Below are positions 54,315-64,000 of a stretch of DNA of 64,000 nucleotides, one piece after another. How positions within the stretch are numbered: the first letter of the stretch is position 1; every line of letters begins with the position of its first letter. The notes under the pieces were generated by a model that ran no database searches, was not told the origin of the DNA, and worked only from the letters and a program-made list of their open reading frames with translations. The stretch covers positions 1,054,001 through 1,118,000 of the forward strand of contig CAJFCV020000001.1 of assembly GCA_904066235.2 (NCBI GenBank), read 5' to 3'. The DNA comes from Bursaphelenchus xylophilus (taxonomy: Eukaryota; Nematoda; Chromadorea; Rhabditida; Aphelenchoididae). Position numbers and translations under genes: made by a program.

Positions 54315-55810
54315 TATACTCCCCGTACAATGTTTTGACCCCCCTCCTAACTCGGTCCAAGGTGTACTAATTCGGACCAAATTTGGTATGTAGTATACTC
54401 ACAGGCTAGTAACAAAAAATAACATAGCAGGACGTACCTTATAGTTGAATTTCAAAAGCTAGGGGCAATTTTCAAAAATCACCTTAAAAAATCGAGGAAA
54501 AAGTTTTGACCCCCCTTAACAAAAAGTTAGATATCGCCAGTGGATGCCACGCAAACTTATTGTAATCGACGTCCCATACCTGAATACAGGTTAATATATG
54601 GTTTTCCGTTGAATGCTTCGTTGCATTTGAGGATTCAACGCGTTAAACCGTTTTTGATGCAGAGCTGCCCAAAATTGTAAAAATCTTGTCCTAGCGCTTT
54701 CCTAGAGCTCTACATTGGGTTTATATTATGTGCTTTAGACCTGTATTTACCTTCTCCTTTCAATAAAAGTGCATGGTGGCCTGGCGGTGTAGATTCGGCA
54801 GATACCCTCTTGTCATGCCCAGCCTTGATGAGCCATTTGCTCTTTGACTCAAGGTCGAGATGTGGTCGTTAGGTCCTTAGTGTAATCCTGAGACTCCTAG
54901 TTACTCTCAGTAATGTAAAATGTTTTGATTTGACACGTTTTGTAATGGGTTTCATTCACCTTAACCTTGACTTTGCCGTTACTGTAGATAACCCCGAGTA
55001 CTACTACATCCCCAACTCCCATTTGGCGTTTCATACGTCTCAAATGAGTATGGTGGGTGCTGTAGCGTCATAAATTACCTGGTCCATCAAATGAAAGCCG
55101 TTTTTGGTGGCTAAAAATCCATTTGAAAAACGCGGGTTTTTCGTTAAGGTGCAGATCGGCGAAGTTGCGCCTGCAAACCATAGGAGACCGAGTCAGCCGG
55201 AGTTTATTCTTTGCTTGAGAGTAACTAGGAGTCTCAGGATTACACTAAGGACCTAACGACCACATCTCGACCTTGAGTCAAAGAGCAAATGGCTCATCAA
55301 GGCTGGGCATGACAAGAGGGTATCTGCCGAATCTACACCGCCAGGCCACCATGCACTTTTATTGAAAGGAGAAGGTAAATACAGGTCTAAAGCACATAAT
55401 ATAAACCCAATGTAGAGCTCTAGGAAAGCGCTAGGGCAAGATTTTTACAATTTTGGGCAGCTCTGCATCAAAAACGGTTTAACGCGTTGAATCCTCAAAT
55501 GCAACGAAGCATTCAACGGAAAACCATATATTAACCTGTATTCAGGTATGGGACGTCGATTACAATAAGTTTGCGTGGCATCCACTGGCGATATCTAACT
55601 TTTTGTTAAGGGGGGTCAAAACTTTTTCCTCGATTTTTTAAGGTGATTTTTGAAAATTGCCCCTAGCTTTTGAAATTCAACTATAAGGTACGTCCTGCTA
55701 TGTCATTTTTTGTTACTAGCCTGTGAGTATACTACATACCAAATTTGGTCCGAATTAGTACACTTTGGACGGAGTTAGGAGGGGGGTCAAAACATTGTAC
55801 GGGGAGTATA
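54315..55810. mobile_element. Foldback element with about 595-bp arms
   Basis: The left arm (54315-54909) starts TATACTCCCCGTACAATG. The right arm (55217-55810) is its nearly perfect inverted copy, ending CATTGTACGGGGAGTATA. About 307 bp separate them. Only a few mismatches were noticed over the arms, so the element is young or its arms are kept alike by conversion. TA flanks suggest a TA target site. No ORF of note is present, so it is non-autonomous. Confidence 0.9.
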
Positions 55811-56493: not shown

Positions 56494-56827
56494 AATGGGA
56501 ACGCAGTTGGGTCCTTCCTCCAGCCGATTCCAGGTCCCTACTACTTCCGCTAGTATCAGTGGGACAACCTCCCAACTGATCAACTCCCCAAACGCCGAAT
56601 CCAACAGTTACAGTCGATAGTTTATTGACAGGCCGCGAGCACAATACAAATAAGATACCAACAGATCCAATATTCCAGCGGGGCCAAACGCACGACCGCT
56701 TTCTAACCTTCCATTCCAACCAACTCCCTCTGACTGATTCCTCCTTCCGTCCACGTTCCTCTCTCACATTAGGCTGCTCGTTATCGTTGCGGGACCAAAT
56801 GAGAGCCCAGATGCGGCTGGCTCCACA
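56494..56827 (-). repeat. 3' LTR of the retrotransposon
   Basis: 334 bp, matching 60130-60463 with no difference noticed by eye. This implies a recent insertion. Confidence 0.85.
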
Positions 56828-59007
56828 CGCCCCTCCCATAGGTTGACGGCGTCCTCGACGTCACGTTGAGTTGACGTTGCTCGGTGCTGATTGTCACTGG
56901 CTTGATTTGACTTGAACTGGTTGGACCGGGCTCGAACTGGCGGGAAATGGCTTGACTGGGCTTGATGTGAATTGAACTGGCGCGACACGTGTTGACATGA
57001 AACGAGAGTAAAGTTAATGTAAAAGTCCCTAAAATCCCTAAAATATCCTAGATACCCCATGGCTCCCCCCTCAATAACTAAACGACGTCCCGGCGTTTTC
57101 AGAAAGCTTTTTCGCATTCCTGAAACAGGCCAACATGTCATCTGAGTTGACTTTTTACCGGAACGTAATAAATAAATAGAGAACTTTTGAATCAAAAACA
57201 GAAATACCTTCAAAATAATACAACAAATTACAATAAAATACGGTATTCCCACAATAAAATAGCAATTTACAATACATTTTGCCATACAGGTCCACATAGT
57301 ATCGAAAGATTTGAATTTTGTGCCCTTTCCTTTGATTTTCTGGTAAGGTGACGTGATATCTGTCTCAGAGTTTGAGTTTTTAGTCTTTTCATTCCTTTCC
57401 AGATCACTAGAATTCATAATTTTGCGGTTTGAGAAGTTTTCGTGACCAAAATTTTCGAATATCTCCTTAAACTTGCATGCTTTCCCTTCGATTCGCGAAT
57501 AATTTGCTAATCCGGCCGAGGTTTGTTGGTTCAATGCACCATTCAAACATTGAGTTTCTTGAGCAAATTTAAATTTACATCCTTTGGCGGGTAGAAACGA
57601 GCTAGAAAAGCGATTGTAGTCTTCGTAATTTTCCGAAATTTGCTTATTCTGACCAAGGGTAAGACTTGACATCAACTGGAAAACACATGACTCTGCTAAA
57701 TTCGCACAATCACTCTCAACTTTCGGGAGATTTGCATCAAGTTCCGAACATTTCTTTCTTATAGGGTCATCTTTTAACCATTCAGCGTAGAGAGAATCAT
57801 CCAAAATTTCCATAAAATCAATACTGTCATCATACTTCTCTTTGTTCCAGCTCATGAATACGCTTTTTGACAATTCTGAGGTATAATCCGTCTGGTAATT
57901 GGCTTTTGTGTGCGATAATGGTGCTTCTGGTTTGTAAAACAACTCTTCGAAATCTCCATTTTCAAATCCTGAATGATCTTCACCTTTCTCTTCGATGTTG
58001 CTATCGGATTCACAAGGTTTCTTACTTTGACATGGCTCATTAGTGGCCGCAAACTTCTCATTGTCTATCTTCACGATCTTTCTTACCTCAGTATTTCTTT
58101 TATATCTTTCCATTAGTTGCCGATAACATCGTAAAAGTTCGTCAAAGTTTTCGTCGTAAGCATCTGTCGGATCAATAATTTCTTTTGGATCACTGCTGCA
58201 TGTTAAGTCTGGGTGTTTATCATGAACAATAGGTGATGAGTTGTTCAAATCAGACTGAGAAAGATCACTTTGACACTGTTCTTGAGATTCTGGAAGGTTT
58301 TTTGAAGATAAAACACATTCTCGTTTCTTCTTGAAGCAACTCTTTTCGAGATGATTCGGTTTTCCACAGAAATTACAATGTAAATCAAGTTTTTTGATGT
58401 CCGATGGCTGATGTTTCTGAAGTTGGAACGCCTTATAGGCCTCGTCTTGAGATGGTAGAGAGTCTCGAATCAAGATTTGGTCATAATGAGGAAATGTCGA
58501 AAGGTAATCTATAACAAAGTCTTTCTCATACCCGAATTCTTCCATGAGTGGATCCATAATGTCTCCGAAATACTCCGTATTCTTGTTCAGAGCTTGATAG
58601 AAGTCCAAGATTCTTCCTCGAAGTCGTTTCTCCAACACTTTACAACGGTATTCAAGATGTAGGTCCTCTGTGGCAACGAAGAGGTTATATAGAATGTCAT
58701 AGATGAACTCTTCTTTCTCTTCACCAGTTATGTAAGACATTCGGCCGTTTCTCAAGAGGTAAATTTGTTCAAATGTTAATGTATTCGTGATGTGTGTATC
58801 TGATAATGCTTTCTTGATGCTTTCTCGATAGAATTCAGTCTTTTCTACACGCGAATCACAATCAGAATAGTTTTGATAAGGCAAGGAAGGAATAGAAGGC
58901 AATTTCAGCGAAAGATTCGACATTTCTCGAAGATTTTTCTGCATTTTAGGTACCAAATTTACTAAATCAACATCGGTCGCACAAACTTCGTTTTTATTCA
59001 CCTGCAT
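56764..59007 (-). CDS. Retrotransposon gag-like ORF with CCHC knuckle and membrane segment
   Basis: A 747-codon ORF starts at ATG 59007 and runs through to within the 3' LTR. Residues 75-200 are helical and gag/capsid-like. Residues 211-224 form a CCHC zinc knuckle (C-x2-C-x4-H-x4-C, from CNFC to EKSC) that would bind element RNA. Residues 230-570 are acidic, Ser/Asn-rich and probably disordered. Residues 579-614 are a strong hydrophobic helix (CYFIVGIPYFIVICCIILK), unexpected in gag and more like the membrane anchor of an env-like protein. Either pol was deleted and gag fused to an env remnant, or this lineage makes a membrane-anchored gag. The last 70 or so codons overlap the purine tract and LTR and are probably not functional. 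Confidence 0.7.
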   Translation of the reverse strand: MQVNKNEVCATDVDLVNLVPKMQKNLREMSNLSLKLPSIPSLPYQNYSDCDSRVEKTEFYRESIKKALSDTHITNTLTFEQIYLLRNGRMSYITGEEKEEFIYDILYNLFVATEDLHLEYRCKVLEKRLRGRILDFYQALNKNTEYFGDIMDPLMEEFGYEKDFVIDYLSTFPHYDQILIRDSLPSQDEAYKAFQLQKHQPSDIKKLDLHCNFCGKPNHLEKSCFKKKRECVLSSKNLPESQEQCQSDLSQSDLNNSSPIVHDKHPDLTCSSDPKEIIDPTDAYDENFDELLRCYRQLMERYKRNTEVRKIVKIDNEKFAATNEPCQSKKPCESDSNIEEKGEDHSGFENGDFEELFYKPEAPLSHTKANYQTDYTSELSKSVFMSWNKEKYDDSIDFMEILDDSLYAEWLKDDPIRKKCSELDANLPKVESDCANLAESCVFQLMSSLTLGQNKQISENYEDYNRFSSSFLPAKGCKFKFAQETQCLNGALNQQTSAGLANYSRIEGKACKFKEIFENFGHENFSNRKIMNSSDLERNEKTKNSNSETDITSPYQKIKGKGTKFKSFDTMWTCMAKCIVNCYFIVGIPYFIVICCIILKVFLFLIQKFSIYLLRSGKKSTQMTCWPVSGMRKSFLKTPGRRLVIEGGAMGYLGYFRDFRDFYINFTLVSCQHVSRQFNSHQAQSSHFPPVRARSNQFKSNQASDNQHRATSTQRDVEDAVNLWEGRVEPAASGLSFGPATITSSLM

Positions 59008-60129
59008 TCTCTTTTCTAAACGTGGAACAACAAATTTTCAAACAACTTATCCTTATTTCCTTTAGGTCTCGAAATTGTACCAGGTCCGCTGGGTTTTTTC
59101 GATATTACACTTGATAGGTTGGCCAAGATTCACGGGGTTCCTGCAATTAAACTTCAGTAACACAATTCAAACGAGTTCTCTGTTCTTTCACAACAAATTA
59201 TAATCAATTACAACCAAAAATTCTTCGGATTTCAACAAAATTTCAAAGTCCACGACACAAGATCAAAGTTCTAGATCAACAACGATTAAATAGGTCCAAA
59301 CGACACAGAAATAACCACACAGCTAGCGAATCAACCAAACGCAGTTTCCCAACAAAATTTCCAAGTAGTTCAAGCCTCTCAAAGACGTATATTGCGTCAA
59401 AAATCGTCAAGTTCACCTAAAATAATATCCAAAAATCGCAAATTTCTCAATTTCTCGTCAAAATTCTTCAAACAAAAGGGTCGTAATAGCTTATTCTCGC
59501 TATAAATAGTCTCACCTCGCTCAATAATCAGGAATGTTGTGAGTGTATGGCCGCAAAAGTATCAATTATATTATACTTGGCCAGGAGTCGAAATTTTCCA
59601 AATTCTTGCGGAAATTCGCTCCAAAGTGGGTAAGTATTCTTTTACCACGCAAGATCTTTGTTCTTCTCACAGACCTGCAGCTGTTTTGACCACGGATTTC
59701 TTAGGATCAAAACAGTTTTTCCTTCCGAGTTTACCTTTCTTTGGGCTCGTCAGGTCCGAATTTACACAATTTCTTGCAGTGTAAATTCGGTTTCAACCTC
59801 ACTCTAAGTTCTTACGGTGAGGCTGAATCAGATAAGACCGTGATTTCTTTTGGTCAATATCTGAGTTCGTCGGACTGATTTCTTATGCCTCCGAACACTT
59901 CTCTCAGAATTATAGATCGAGAGGCCGAGATTTAGGTAATAATTCTTTTACCCTCGAGAGAATCAAATGTTTGAAATCACTCGGCAGATAGACCGAAATT
60001 TCTTCGAGTCGGATCTATCTGATCTCGTTGTAACCTAAAAATCGAACGAAACAAGGAAAAAAACCACCAAAATCCAACGCAAATCGAGTCCAACGTGTTC
60101 GAAGTGTCGTCGTTCCGTAGTGGTCGCCA
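59008..60129 (-). other. 5' leader of the retrotransposon
   Basis: Non-coding sequence between the primer-binding site and the gag-like start, about 1.1 kb. The short ORFs here are not conserved with anything recognised. The packaging signal would be expected in this stretch. Confidence 0.5.
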
Positions 60130-60463
60130 AATGGGAACGCAGTTGGGTCCTTCCTCCAGCCGATTCCAGGTCCCTACTACTTCCGCTAGTATCAGTGGGA
60201 CAACCTCCCAACTGATCAACTCCCCAAACGCCGAATCCAACAGTTACAGTCGATAGTTTATTGACAGGCCGCGAGCACAATACAAATAAGATACCAACAG
60301 ATCCAATATTCCAGCGGGGCCAAACGCACGACCGCTTTCTAACCTTCCATTCCAACCAACTCCCTCTGACTGATTCCTCCTTCCGTCCACGTTCCTCTCT
60401 CACATTAGGCTGCTCGTTATCGTTGCGGGACCAAATGAGAGCCCAGATGCGGCTGGCTCCACA
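60130..60463 (-). repeat. 5' LTR of the retrotransposon
   Basis: The boundaries are set by the comparison with 56494-56827, by the TGTGG start, and by the adjoining primer-binding site. Confidence 0.85.
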
Positions 60464-61082
60464 GTTTGTAAGTAATACTAATTTTCATCCATGAATTGAT
60501 GCGATCCCCACATCCTTTCCGCATCTCATTACCGTTCTGGTTCATAGATGTATGGATCCTATAAGCGGATTCGGCGCCAAAAAGAAGCCGTCTATATCAC
60601 CCATCTACATCTGATGTTGCTCAGGTCCTATAAATAGTATTGTATAATATAACGGTGGGTCCAGCTGGTGTTTATGTATCTGCCTGCCCGTCTACATGAT
60701 CATGCTGCTCGCAAAAACCACAATGCATTCAGAAACTGCTATGCCGAGTTGTTGTGTTGTTGCGTTCTTCATGGAAACAAATGTGGAATGCTTGATGTTG
60801 GTGTGGTTTGTTAAGCCGTATCACAAGTAATGCCCAAGAATTTTGAAAATTTTACGGTCCAAGAGATCCGCCACAAACCTCTGTACATTAAATCTCAAGA
60901 GACAAATTTGGGATTCGTTGATGTTATTTTAGATGTTTGCCTGTAACCCCGTTAATAAATCGTTTTTTACGGAAACTGGCAATATTGAAAATGAAATCAA
61001 AAGTTGATTGTTTATATTACATAACATTACATAATAATATTACATCGAAGTAGTTATAGGCTACAAAAATGAGCCAGGGGGG

Positions 61083-61232
61083 AACCGGAAGTGATAGAGT
61101 AGGGGAAAGGAGGAGAGTCAGACAGTGAGAGAGGCGAGAGAGTGTTGAGAGGAGGAGAGTCAGACAGCGAGAGAGGCAAGAGAATGTGGAGGGAGAGAGT
61201 CAGACGGTGAGAGAGTGTGTAGAGGAAGGAGA
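61083..61232. repeat. Purine-rich minisatellite, about 3 units
   Basis: GAGAGTCAGACAGTGAGAGA recurs three times with a period of about 45 bp (third copy GAGAGTCAGACGGTGAGAGA). Confidence 0.75.
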
Positions 61233-61888
61233 GTGGGCGGAGCTTGTGATAAAATCATTAATAGTTGAAATAAAATTATTTTTCCAGCAATTCCGAGTTT
61301 TCAACAAGAAGATGTGCAACTTTTTGCAGTTATGCGGAAAATATTTTGTTTCCGGAAATATTAAACATTAAAGGGACGCCAAGTATTTCAAAAAAACAAA
61401 ATGCGCAATATAAATATTGTTGTAAAAATGTTTTGCAAAGTTTCAAAAAACTTGCAAAAAGTTTAAAATAATTTGCAGACACTTGCAAAAGTTTTACGAT
61501 TTATGACCGACGTAATGTGGTTTTACGAACGAAAGGAATGTACAGTAAGAAAAGACGAAAATACCGTAATCCTTAGCAGTCAACCGCACAGAACAGTGCA
61601 ACTGAAGCTAAATGACTTTAGGCTATTTTGAGCTGATGACTCTATGATGTTGATTGATGACTTGTACTTTGTACCAGGATGCAAAAACGCGACAACTTAT
61701 AGTTTGTAGTCTTTGCATCCGGAGCTTGATTAATCACAAATAAAATTTGCAAATTCAAAACGCGGCAACTTATACTATTTCTACCTTCGCTGTACGATCA
61801 GTCAGTGCCTGTGCCTTTCTGCTGTGCGGCGGTCCGCGTCGTTCTCTCCGAAGATTGCGAAATCTACGCGTCGTTACTGTACTTTGTC

Positions 61889-61896
61889 TATTTAAG
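61889..61896 (+). promoter_or_regulatory. TATTTAAG core-promoter motif, gene at 61932
   Basis: TATTTAAG lies 36 nt before the ATG at 61932. With a usual TATA-to-start distance of about 30 nt, the 5' UTR would be very short. A TTTTCAG at 61905-61911 could alternatively serve as a splice-leader acceptor. Confidence 0.6.
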
Positions 61897-61931: not shown

Positions 61932-62668
61932 ATGCAATTTGTCCCAAAAACCTCAACTCGAGTGTCCAAGAAGACAAAAAGAGATGTAAGTTTTTAAATT
62001 TAAATTCGTATTTTTTGTTTTAGGTATCAGAGGCTGTCATCGGAGAGAAGGAAAACATTCCGCCCGAAATTGTTGTTCAGCTGCCCGCTACTCAGACTCC
62101 TCAACAAGGTCAAGGGATGATATCACAGCAAAGTAAAGCAATGAATCAGACTCCTCAACAAGGGCAGGGAATGAATCCACAAACCCAAAAGGTAGCTCCT
62201 CAGAATGCCCAAGGAACTCAGGATGTGTTGAAGAGAAAGTTGCCGTCCCGTGCCAATGAAGCCAAACCCGCTAAATCAATGGACCAGTAGGTTTTAAAAT
62301 TTTTCTGACTTTGTTCACTCTAGGTGGGTGGTCAAGCGCTGCAAGCTCAATGTTGAGGCCAATAAAGTCGAATCCGTGACCCTGTTCCTGCGGTCAGCCA
62401 TGGTCCCCTTCCTACAGCAATCAATTACGTTCCGCAACGAAGCCCTGTTCCAGCGCCTCGCGGCGTTGGTGGTCGGAGAGGTAGGTAGAAAATGTGCATA
62501 TGTTTGGAAAATGAAAAAAAAAATACGCACATTTTTTACTTATAGGTCATCGAGGTGAAGGACTACAAGGCCTACAATACATATGTCACAATTTTTGGAG
62601 AAGGTGATGTGAACACAACCGTCCAGTTCCAAAACTCCGCTGACGAAGAGGAAGATATGCTTATTTAA
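61932..62668 (+). CDS. Maverick-like cluster protein, Q-rich, acidic tail, possibly ssDNA-binding
   Basis: Four exons (61932-61985, 62024-62286, 62324-62480, 62546-62668) with introns of 37-65 nt sum to 597 bp, giving 198 aa. Residues 1-20 are basic. Residues 40-82 are Gln-rich with the octapeptide TPQQGQGM at 43-50 and again at 61-68, from a 54-nt tandem duplication. Residues 107-188 form a compact beta-rich domain (WVVKRCKLNVEANKV to YNTYVTIFGEG). The tail DEEEDMLI is acidic. A basic or disordered arm, a beta-barrel-sized domain and an acidic tail resemble single-strand DNA-binding proteins of viruses, but I do not recognise the family. It lies 64 bp upstream of the packaging ATPase on the same strand. 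A diverged broken copy is at about 56.0-56.3 kb. Confidence 0.75.
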
Positions 62669-62669
62669 G
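62662..62669 (+). promoter_or_regulatory. TATTTAAG core-promoter motif for the ATPase, overlapping a stop codon
   Basis: The last codon and stop (ATT TAA) of the upstream gene are embedded in TATTTAAG, 64 nt before the ATPase ATG. The upstream gene's AATAAA (62713-62718) lies beyond it, so the two transcription units overlap. Confidence 0.6.
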
Positions 62670-62732: not shown

Positions 62733-63365
62733 ATGGAGGTTATTGATTCGGCAGAGATAAAATTTCGTTCCCCATTCGGAATGGTGGTTTCGGGGAGTAG
62801 TAGCAGTGGAAAAACAGTATTCACCATGAAGCTCATCGACCAGGCAGCATCTCTGATTTCCCCGCCTCCGCCAGACGTTTTGTATTCATATGGACAGTAC
62901 GGCGACCACATTAGAGCCCTCGAACAAAAAGGAATAAAAACAATGCAAGGGGTGCCGGGCGAAGAAACGCTGCGCAATTTGAGGCCCCACTCTCTCCTTG
63001 TTCTGGATGATCAGATGAGTGCAGTGGACGAAAAGTGGTTGGTTGATGTTTTTGCGAAAAAGTCACACCACATGCTGTTCAACGTCATCTTTTTGACACA
63101 AGATGCGTTTGAGAAATCGTTGAAAACCGTGAGGATGAATGCACAGTATCTTGTCCTGCTAAAAGCTCCAAATTCCCAACTCCATGTCCGAGTTTTGGGC
63201 TCGCACTTGTTTCCTCGCAAGCGTGGATTTGTTGAGGCATACAATGACGCAACAGAGAAGCCCTACTCCTACCTGTTGATCGATCTGCATCCGCGAACCA
63301 AAGACACGCTGCGTCTTCGTGCAAACATTTTCCACGGCGAAATGACCACGATTTATCAGTTATAG
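62733..63365 (+). CDS. Maverick/Polinton-type genome-packaging ATPase (A32/FtsK-HerA-like)
   Basis: A 210-aa single-exon protein. Walker A is GSSSSGKT at 21-28, and Walker B is SLLVLDDQM at 87-95 with D92-D93. KKSHHMLFNVIFLTQ at 109-123 holds the SHH and sensor TQ motifs, and FVEAYNDAT at 166-174, SYLLIDLHP and LRLRANIF follow. This order is that of the DNA-packaging ATPases of Mavericks/Polintons and adintoviruses, which pump element DNA into a capsid. It is close to the usual length and has no frameshift, so it could be active. The ATG is the first in frame, with TATTTAAG 64 nt upstream and AATAAA 27 nt after the stop. Its 3' end overlaps the TBP gene on the other strand by 6 bp. Capsid genes expected with it are not in the window. 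Confidence 0.88.
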   Translation: MEVIDSAEIKFRSPFGMVVSGSSSSGKTVFTMKLIDQAASLISPPPPDVLYSYGQYGDHIRALEQKGIKTMQGVPGEETLRNLRPHSLLVLDDQMSAVDEKWLVDVFAKKSHHMLFNVIFLTQDAFEKSLKTVRMNAQYLVLLKAPNSQLHVRVLGSHLFPRKRGFVEAYNDATEKPYSYLLIDLHPRTKDTLRLRANIFHGEMTTIYQL

Positions 63366-63928
63366 GGTGTGACAAAATTTCTGAACTTGAGAATAAATTG
63401 GAGAAAATGATTCAAGTATTTGTTGCATTGATTTTCCTCCATTAATTACAATCTTTCCAGTCGTGAAAACCAAACAGGTAATTCCATTTTTTCTGTAGAA
63501 AAGGCCGGGAAAAATTTCGGGTTCGTAGAAAAAGTCGTGCGGACAAATATTCCTGAGGCCGTTCAAATCAATTTCACTGCCCATGTTCGAGGTTGCGACA
63601 AGGTTGACGATTTTGAATCCGTGTGGTCGCGACTCCATGTCATAATGTTGAAGTAAATCGCATAACGAGACAACGGTTTTGCGAGCCAATTTTTCCGTCT
63701 TCACTCCGGTAATAACACACTTTCCCGTCCGGAACAAGAGAACCGTAGCACCATTTAAGCGCACAATTGCTCCGTTGAACTTCGTCTTGTTGAATTTGAC
63801 TTGTTCACAGCGATTCGACAGCTCCAAAAGGTCGAGTTCGCGGCCTGCAACTTTCATAGAAAAGACAAAAAGAACCCACCGACACTTGCTACCGAAACAA
63901 TATTTCTGAGGACAATTTCGAAATCCAT
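63360..63928 (-). CDS. TATA-binding-protein homologue carried by the Maverick-like cluster
   Basis: Two minus exons, 63928-63880 and 63844-63360, are separated by a 35-nt intron (GTGGGT to TTGCAG). Together they give 534 bp, 177 aa. It is a bare TBP core with two direct repeats, residues 9-83 and 93-177. Exon 1 supplies the first strand (RNIVSVASVG), which lines up with the start of repeat 1. The four phenylalanines that wedge into the TATA minor groove (yeast TBP F99, F116, F190, F207) correspond to F39, F54, F128 and F143. FRTGKCVITG and FTTGKIVINGGKS match the F-x-SGK strands, and YEPEIFPGLFYR is the near-invariant TBP signature, with E124 and E126 at TFIIB-contact positions. No N-terminal extension is present. 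Expected function: binding TATA-like DNA and recruiting TFIIB/RNA polymerase to element promoters. Alternatively, a recently captured host TBP paralogue. Confidence 0.88.
63392..63397 (+). terminator. Polyadenylation signal AATAAA for the ATPase
   Basis: AATAAA 27 nt past the ATPase stop, lying inside the TBP-like coding region on the other strand. Confidence 0.55.
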
Positions 63929-63945: not shown

Positions 63946-63953
63946 TATTTAAG
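63946..63953 (+). promoter_or_regulatory. TATTTAAG motif pointing rightward
   Basis: Lies 36 nt before an ATG at 63990. It forms a divergent pair with the leftward motif at 63982-63989 in a 61-nt intergenic gap. Confidence 0.5.
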
Positions 63954-63981: not shown

Positions 63982-63989
63982 CTTAAATA
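63982..63989 (-). promoter_or_regulatory. TATTTAAG motif for the TBP-like gene
   Basis: TATTTAAG on the minus strand, with 53 nt between it and the TBP-like ATG (63928-63926). Confidence 0.6.
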
Positions 63990-64000
63990 ATGGTGCATGT
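63990..64000 (+). CDS. Possible start of a divergent gene, cut by the window edge
   Basis: ATGGTGCATGT at the very end is preceded by TATTTAAG at the same spacing (36 nt) as the gene at 61932. Only four codons are visible, so the call rests on promoter position alone. Confidence 0.3.

What the first reader, a model, noticed from the sequence alone, without database searches (positions are those of the whole stretch)
63360..63928. A TATA-binding protein encoded beside a Maverick-type packaging ATPase
Seen: a 177-aa two-exon protein with both TBP repeats, all four DNA-wedging phenylalanines (F39, F54, F128, F143) and the YEPEIFPG signature, tail-to-tail with a Maverick/Polinton-type packaging ATPase. 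Known: some giant viruses carry TBP-like genes, and the usual Maverick set is polymerase, integrase, ATPase, protease and capsids. I do not recall TBP as part of nematode Mavericks. Inference: the element supplies its own promoter-recognition factor, which could free it from host control or direct polymerase to element genes. The protein is diverged but intact, which suggests selection.
Basis: partly seen in the sequence, partly recalled or inferred. Interest (0 to 1): 0.95.

Follow-up and report, generated by a model that had tools for sequence, protein, structure and literature searches.

The report
Virus-like transposon with own TATA-binding protein
A virus-like jumping gene in a nematode genome carries its own copy of the protein that marks where genes start, together with an unusual start signal in front of most of its own genes, as if it runs a private gene-expression system.

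Summary
Window 63360-63928 (-) encodes an intact TBP (Pfam PF00352, 6e-36) whose stop overlaps that of a Maverick packaging ATPase. The genome is very probably Bursaphelenchus xylophilus (a published 140-bp diagnostic amplicon matches exactly). Beyond the window the TBP lies in a complete 14.3-kb Maverick (family A): ~615-bp TIRs, 6-bp TSD, polB, integrase, protease, capsid-like genes; a second copy sits on another contig. A different 17.8-kb family (B, two copies) carries a second TBP, 36% identical, with an intron at the same site and phase. No TBP hit lies in families C and D. New here: 8 of 11 family-A gene starts have the box TATTTAAG 34-71 nt upstream, against 1 in 113 kb of mostly host DNA; no 8-mer reached 6 in 1000 shuffles. 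B, and most C and D genes seen, have TATAAA-type boxes. TBP-A has two rare substitutions at DNA-binding positions; both TBPs keep the TFIIB glutamates but lose a basic helix. Most likely the element brings its own promoter-recognition factor, working like the TATT-binding viral TBPs of beta/gamma-herpesviruses. Binding and expression are untested; no structure could be predicted.

The parts
61049..61663 (.). left terminal inverted repeat of the family-A Maverick (~615 bp; element about C1:1115049-1129312); begins AGTAGT, preceded by target duplication CATCGA
61889..61896 (+). TATTTAAG box of gene 1
61932..62668 (+). gene 1 of the element, probably several exons, function unknown
   Evidence: ORFs; no significant Pfam match for the two pieces tested; exon joins not tested
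62662..62669 (+). TATTTAAG box upstream of the ATPase (overlaps the end of gene 1)
62733..63365 (+). packaging ATPase (A32-like, 210 aa)
   Evidence: Pox_A32 E 0.0019, below cut-off; 12 matches in the genome
63360..63844 (-). TBP exon 2 (most of both TBP repeats)
63845..63879 (-). 35-nt intron, phase 1, same position and phase as intron 1 of the family-B TBP
63880..63928 (-). TBP exon 1 (49 nt)
63946..63953 (+). TATTTAAG box of the 142-aa gene that starts at 63990
63982..63989 (-). TATTTAAG box of the TBP gene itself, 61 nt before its ATG
63990..64000 (+). first bases of the 142-aa gene; the rest of the element (MCP, 112 aa, 378 aa, protease, polB, penton, integrase, right TIR) lies beyond the window in L009 and L010

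Best explanation
A Maverick (Polinton) lineage in an ancestor of this nematode captured a nematode TBP gene. The copy became an element gene that is kept in two diverged Maverick families. In family A it acts as a dedicated promoter-recognition factor: it binds the TATTTAAG boxes that lie before most element genes, including its own, and recruits host TFIIB and thus host RNA polymerase II. It is predicted to escape host factors that bind the basic helix of normal TBP (such as Mot1 and TFIIA). This would give the element coordinated, late-like expression of capsid, packaging and integrase genes that host TBP serves poorly. Shown: element membership, intact frames, recurrence in two families, shared introns, box distribution, residue changes. 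Inferred: DNA binding, box preference, TFIIB use, escape from regulators, timing.
For: Two complete A copies and two complete B copies with TBP, TIRs and 6-bp duplications. Phase-1 intron after exactly 49 nt in both A and B; second intron of B at the same codon and phase 2 as in both host TBP genes. A+B on one side of a branch, 92/91; A+B with nematode TBPs not rejected, p 0.106. TATTTAAG before 8 of 11 A gene starts, all 8 occurrences in the element being these, against 1 in 113,242 bp of background; any 8-mer reached at most 5 in 1000 shuffles. No TATAAAAG, TATAAATA or TATATAAA in the 9.9-kb piece L009 of A and one TATAAATA, in the TIR, in the window piece; many in B, and no TATTTAAG in the four B pieces. 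All four phenylalanines, the N69 and N159 asparagines and both TFIIB glutamates kept in A and B; the yeast T215 position is Asn in A and in 0 of 125 other TBPs, I194 is Phe in A and in 0 of 125. Basic helix residues lost in both, as reported for viral TBPs (PMC7221094 section 12). Beta/gamma-herpesvirus TBP-like proteins bind a TATT box, which cellular TBP is said to bind inefficiently (PMC4893493 passages).
Against: No binding, expression or transcript data. Family B has a TBP but ordinary TATAAA boxes, and TBP-less C and D also have TATA-type boxes, so an element TBP is not needed for such promoters. TATTTAAG occurs before the ATPase of TBP-less family C and once in a D locus. Yeast T215R, I194F, T124N and R141A are listed as losing DNA binding (PMC2265533 table passages), so A's changes at T215, I194 and R141 could mean lost rather than altered binding. 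3 of 11 A genes (378 aa, protease, polB) lack the box in sense orientation, and the TBP gene of B has no TATAAA in the 110 nt upstream. A and B did not join in the larger tree. No predicted structure.
Confidence: 0.62

Rival explanations
1. The TBP is a host-directed effector: a minimal TBP core that competes for TATA boxes or titrates TFIIB and so dampens host transcription, while element genes are read by host TBP.
For: Both TBPs keep most DNA-face positions and the TFIIB glutamates but lose the basic helix; family B boxes are ordinary TATAAA, so B would need no special factor.
Against: Does not explain the switch to TATTTAAG in family A nor A's rare DNA-face changes.
Confidence: 0.17
2. The TBP is a passenger: a captured host gene without function, not yet decayed.
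For: Captures of host genes by Mavericks are known (recalled); copies within a family are young, so intactness of a copy alone says little.
Against: A and B TBPs are only 36% identical yet both intact. Of 12 DNA-contact positions that I picked from recall, 10 are identical in A and B (binomial p 0.001 against 36%; 0.003 if I194, which differs, is added). They share an intron that both host TBPs lack, so they were kept over long divergence.
Confidence: 0.06
3. The TBP is an architectural DNA-bending protein for replication or packaging and not a transcription factor.
For: Tail to tail with the packaging ATPase in A.
Against: In B it lies between the PAZ and MCP genes, not beside the ATPase; retention of the TFIIB glutamates would be unexplained.
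Confidence: 0.07
4. On origin only: A and B acquired TBPs independently, or one element passed its copy to the other, so there was no single ancestral capture.
For: Different place in the element (A beside ATPase, B between PAZ and MCP); no TBP hit in families C and D; A+B support is only 92/91 with long branches, and they did not join.
Against: Same extra intron, same phase, same 49-nt first exon in both, absent from both host TBPs.
Confidence: 0.3

Closest known systems
Maverick/Polinton transposons
   Same: TIRs, 6-bp target duplication, type-B polymerase, RVE integrase, packaging ATPase, cysteine protease, capsid-like genes (gene set as in PMC4028283, passage)
   Different: Adds a TBP gene (families A, B), a noncanonical TATTTAAG promoter box (A) and a PAZ-domain gene (B)
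Beta/gamma-herpesvirus TBP-like proteins (EBV BcRF1, KSHV/MHV68 ORF24, HCMV UL87) and their TATT late promoters
   Same: Virus-encoded TBP-fold protein paired with a TATT-type box before late genes (PMC4893493, passages)
   Different: Those are about 10% identical to TBP and BcRF1 acts in a complex of six EBV proteins (same passages); TBP-A is a clear sequence homologue (PF00352). Analogy, not membership
TBP-like proteins of large dsDNA viruses and mirusviruses
   Same: DNA-contact Phe mostly kept, N-lobe basic signature lost (PMC7221094, section 12 and passages); TBP in 59% of mirusvirus genomes (PMC10132985, passage); the alga virus CpV-BQ1 has a TBP and two TFIIB proteins thought to redirect host polymerase (PMC12085832, passage); ASFV B263R (PMC5825884, listing only)
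   Different: Almost all TBP-bearing viruses of PMC7221094 also encode a TFIIB-like protein and often lose the TFIIB glutamate; no TFIIB-like match was found in the Maverick ORFs scanned and the glutamates are kept
Host TBP genes of this nematode (C3:5325029, C5:5872039) and TLF-like gene (C1:4180152)
   Same: TBP fold; family B shares the phase-2 intron of both host TBP genes
   Different: 32-33% identity to A; host TBPs lack the phase-1 intron and keep the basic helix

Membership tests
Maverick/Polinton | long terminal inverted repeats and 6-bp target site duplication | tested here: met
   ~615 bp (A), 680-688 bp (B). The script found CATATG and TGTCTC (B); CATCGA and TATACT (A) I read from the flanks it printed, after moving the right end by 3 bases to AGTAGT. 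That AGTAGT termini are typical is recalled
[quoted passage not shown]
   DNA_pol_B_2 5.4e-23 in A and 1.4e-16 in B; protein priming itself not tested
Maverick/Polinton | RVE integrase | tested here: met
   rve 6.6e-9 in B; the part of A scanned gave 0.012, below cut-off; A is 49% identical to B over residues 4-307
Maverick/Polinton | adenain-like cysteine protease | tested here: met
   PF00770 6e-6 in B, over cut-off; A only 0.004, below cut-off
Maverick/Polinton | packaging ATPase | tested here: met
   Pox_A32 0.0019 for A, below cut-off; no A32 match for B; A and B 53% identical
Maverick/Polinton | double jelly-roll major capsid protein and penton | tested here: inconclusive
   DJR-like PF21738 0.031 for A, no capsid family for B or the penton-like ORFs; MCP profile has no PDB match. 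Named from position and mutual similarity
TBP (TFIID) family | two TBP repeats over the curated cut-off | tested here: met
   A: 122.5 bits, cut-off 22.9; both repeats of A and of B over cut-off
TBP (TFIID) family | four intercalating Phe and two central Asn | tested here: met
   both A and B
TBP (TFIID) family | bends TATA DNA and nucleates a pre-initiation complex | not testable with these tools
   needs biochemistry
Herpesvirus-type viral TBP with late complex | partner proteins of the viral pre-initiation complex | not tested
   not searched specifically; no TFIIB-like Pfam match in the ORFs scanned. Not filed as a member

The most novel reading that the evidence does not exclude
Some animal Mavericks run an orthogonal core-promoter system: a host-derived TBP and the element's TATA box have co-diverged (TATAAA-type to TATTTAAG), the TBP has shed the host's regulatory surface but kept TFIIB contact, and so a transposon has independently evolved a herpesvirus-style viral-TBP/TATT switch in a nematode genome.
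Probability: 0.45. Interest if true: 0.92.

Novelty: new variant of a known kind. Interest (0 to 1): 0.86.

Why it matters
How an integrated DNA virus or virus-like transposon switches its genes on in an animal is largely open. Here both halves of a promoter system, factor and box, are visible in one 14-kb element, with a second family (B) that has the factor but an ordinary box, and two families (C, D) without the factor. That natural series makes TBP-box co-evolution directly testable with a few purified proteins and DNA probes, and would give a second, independent case of the TATT strategy known from herpesviruses.

Tried and rejected
Rejected: a host TBP duplicate near a Maverick fragment (the flanks and a second copy show a complete element); recent origin from the host paralogue on C5 (p-AU 0.003); prokaryotic origin was not pursued, since the best solved-structure matches are human TBP (7e-25) and archaeal TBPs are weaker (1e-18 to 1e-20) (which entries are human or archaeal is partly recalled).

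Led nowhere: relatives in IMG/VR with TBP (A1, P0002), ATPase and MCP queries, four scans, none confirmed; the profile of A+B TBPs gave 390 proteins, of which the 120 listed are 30-39% identical, eukaryotic TBPs where named, none shown to lie in a Maverick; canonical SL1 not found; MCP against solved structures, nothing; PAZ ORF, no homologue in the protein collection. The first tree, 36 rows, did not join A and B as neighbours and warned of long branches. For the 26-row tree I dropped ten rows after seeing it: TLF, P0001, P0002, P0004, P0005, P0065, P0090, P0099, P0124, P0125. The TATTTAAG box was first noticed by eye at three genes and then tested by the unbiased 8-mer count. In one search the gene-1 start was one base off and the 142-aa gene had only 89 nt upstream; one search used the corrected start and full lengths with the same count. 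Of 15 family-B ORFs printed, two (156 aa and 192 aa, first ATG far inside the ORF) were left out of the 13 counted. One search failed after its first two results; the rest was run.

Full report
WHAT IS THERE. A 177-aa TBP is encoded on the minus strand, 63360-63928, with a 35-nt intron at 63845-63879 chosen from five possible ones. Pfam TBP (PF00352) matches both repeats at 6.2e-36. It lies tail to tail with a 210-aa packaging ATPase (62733-63365), the ORFs overlapping by 6 nt.

WHICH ORGANISM. The window is G000:C1:1054001-1118000 in a 78.25-Mb genome of 8 contigs. The published Bursaphelenchus xylophilus-specific set BxITSF/BxITSP/BxITSR (PMC3823978, table passage) is present exactly, in order, spanning 140 bp as published. 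I take the genome to be B. xylophilus, the pine wood nematode. Canonical SL1 was not found.

THE ELEMENT. A second copy lies on C5:8431678. Both copies belong to a ~14.3-kb element with ~615-bp terminal inverted repeats; aligned pieces of the two copies are 98.9-100% identical. The ends read AGTAGT and each copy has a 6-bp duplication (CATCGA, TATACT), read from the flanks printed. Inside are ORFs for polB (5.4e-23), integrase, protease and capsid-like proteins. The capsid labels rest on position and on similarity between families, since Pfam support is weak (0.031) and the MCP profile had no PDB match. In the pieces compared no stop interrupts the genes of the C5 copy; its 378-aa gene is 402 aa long there, with more repeats. 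So the element is a complete Maverick (family A), and the window holds its left 2.95 kb.

A SECOND FAMILY WITH A TBP. The TBP hits on C2 and C6 lie in another Maverick, family B, 17.8 kb, TIRs 680-688 bp, duplications CATATG and TGTCTC, with ATPase, protease, MCP, polB, penton and integrase. Family-B TBP has 174 aa in three exons, open in both copies, 36% identical to A; the B copies differ in exons 2-3 by two nonsynonymous and one synonymous codon. In the whole genome PF00352 hits seven genes: two host TBPs, one TLF-like gene, two A, two B (a search that scores only its best candidates). The ATPase search finds 12 matches: 2 A, 2 B, 7 of family C, 1 of family D. No TBP hit lies at the C or D places, nor in the eight C/D ATPase loci by an A/B/host TBP profile. 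TBP is thus seen in 4 of 12 ATPase-bearing copies, 2 of 4 families. PolB or integrase searches also touch further elements (C4:106919, C5:7793058, C6:12233587, C4:3284497) without a TBP hit there.

ORIGIN. Intron 1 of A and of B follows exactly 49 coding nt in phase 1 in both; both host TBP genes read through this place. Intron 2 of B splits the same aligned codon in phase 2 as the intron of both host TBP genes; the TLF intron lies five codons away by my reading. The simplest reading is one capture of a nematode TBP gene with its phase-2 intron, gain of intron 1 in the captured gene, and loss of intron 2 in A. Whether the phase-2 intron is special to nematodes was not tested. The tree is weak because A and B are very long branches: A+B 92/91; A+B+nematodes not rejected (p 0.106); A+B with the host paralogue on C5 rejected (p 0.003). 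In the larger first tree A and B did not join. Independent captures or exchange between elements are not excluded.

THE PROMOTER BOX. In the 100 nt before 11 family-A gene starts the commonest 8-mer is TATTTAAG, in 8 of 11, at 34-71 nt before the ATG; all 8 occurrences in the element are of this kind. Background is 1 in 113,242 bp, mostly host DNA. In 1000 dinucleotide shuffles no 8-mer exceeded 5 of 11. Genes with the box: gene 1, ATPase, TBP, 142 aa, MCP, 112 aa, penton, integrase. Without: 378 aa and protease, which follow other genes on the same strand, and polB, which has the penton box in the opposite sense. Family B has TATAAA before 9 of 13 starts (0 of 1000 shuffles reached 9), 6 of them at 40-58 nt, and no TATTTAAG in its four pieces L015, L016, L018, L019; its best 8-mer, TCTATAAA in 4 of 13, is not beyond shuffles (86 of 1000 reached 4 or more). 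By eye, TATA-type boxes stand before 4 of 7 family-C and 4 of 5 family-D genes seen, TATTTAAG before the C ATPase, and one TATTTAAG lies in a D locus. The 9.9-kb piece of A holds no TATAAAAG, TATAAATA or TATATAAA; the window piece holds one TATAAATA, in the TIR at 61409. So TATA promoters are general in these Mavericks and family A has switched to TATT.

THE PROTEIN. Against 125 other TBPs (5 and the 120 listed of 390), A and B keep all four Phe, the Asn of yeast N69 and N159, and the two TFIIB-contact Glu (yeast E186, E188). A alone has Asn at the yeast T215 position (125 others: T 115, A 8, V 1, S 1) and Phe at I194 (I 106, V 14, K 3, N 1, T 1); B keeps T215 and has Asn at I194. Yeast numbering is mine and fits the residues listed in PMC2265533. 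There, T215R and I194F are among mutants that lose DNA binding, and T215 is said to face the DNA (passages); that I194 belongs to the known altered-specificity triple mutant, and that T124/T215 touch the central base pairs, is recalled. The basic helix residues (yeast R137, K138, R141, K145) are V, S, D, H in A and gap, gap, D, Y in B. A basic N-lobe patch, three of its positions in helix H2, binds TFIIA, Mot1, TAF1, Brf1 and Brf2, and its loss in viral TBPs was proposed to let them evade Mot1 (PMC7221094, section 12 read); that my four positions are that patch is inference. Unlike most viruses of that paper, no TFIIB-like protein was found in the element ORFs scanned, in keeping with use of host TFIIB.

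MECHANISM. The parts fit an element-encoded TBP that reads element boxes and hands over to host TFIIB and polymerase II, out of reach of host TBP removal. The nearest working analogue is the TATT-binding TBP-like protein of beta/gamma-herpesviruses; [quoted passage not shown] Binding, transcript starts and timing are untested.

NOVELTY. Searches for Maverick or Polinton with TATA-binding protein or TBP, or with nematodes, in the held open library showed no report of a TBP in a Maverick among the titles and abstract starts listed; some searches listed only 15 of 16, 5 of 1812, 12 of 52 and 15 of 29. Joint hits opened in passages concern other elements or giant viruses. Jeong 2023 is not held. 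TBPs in other viruses are known.

LIMITS. No expression data, no structure (eleven busy replies), no other nematode genome available, gene starts taken as the first likely ATG by me.

Noticed in passing
L018 5105-5506 (-), C6:10630208-10630555; second copy C2:2300080-2300427: Family-B Maverick encodes a standalone PAZ domain (PF02170 4.2e-6, 27.1 bits against cut-off 28.8) that aligns over nearly its whole length with the human AGO2 PAZ domain (5.9e-4), next to its TBP. Only the two B copies were found in this genome (which did not find host Argonautes either), no homologue in the protein collection. It may bind small-RNA 3' ends and blunt silencing; untested.
   Followed up: partly
G000 C5:5871812-5872568 (L006): A second, host-type TBP paralogue with the basic helix and the host intron; groups with a Panagrolaimus TBP.
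   Followed up: partly
G000 C1:222806, 2761591, 3539174, 9674948; C4:1539045; C5:1534108, 3608775: Seven copies of Maverick family C without a TBP hit; ungapped comparison of the 3.6-kb ATPase loci gives 99.9% for four of six pairs, the other two lower, possibly by indels. Looks like a recent burst.
   Followed up: partly
G000 C6:428570-435890: A family-B remnant with integrase and polB pieces but no ATPase or TBP hit.
   Followed up: no
L009 2628-2843: 36-nt GC-rich tandem repeats inside the 378-aa gene of family A; the C5 copy is 402 aa, open, with a different repeat number.
   Followed up: partly
window 54681-54872 and 55253-55444: Identical ORFs on opposite strands, an inverted duplication.
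   Followed up: no
window 56764-59037 (-): A 757-aa ORF with a zinc-knuckle-like stretch; part of the neighbouring ORF recurs at 60035-60484. Possibly a retroelement.
   Followed up: no
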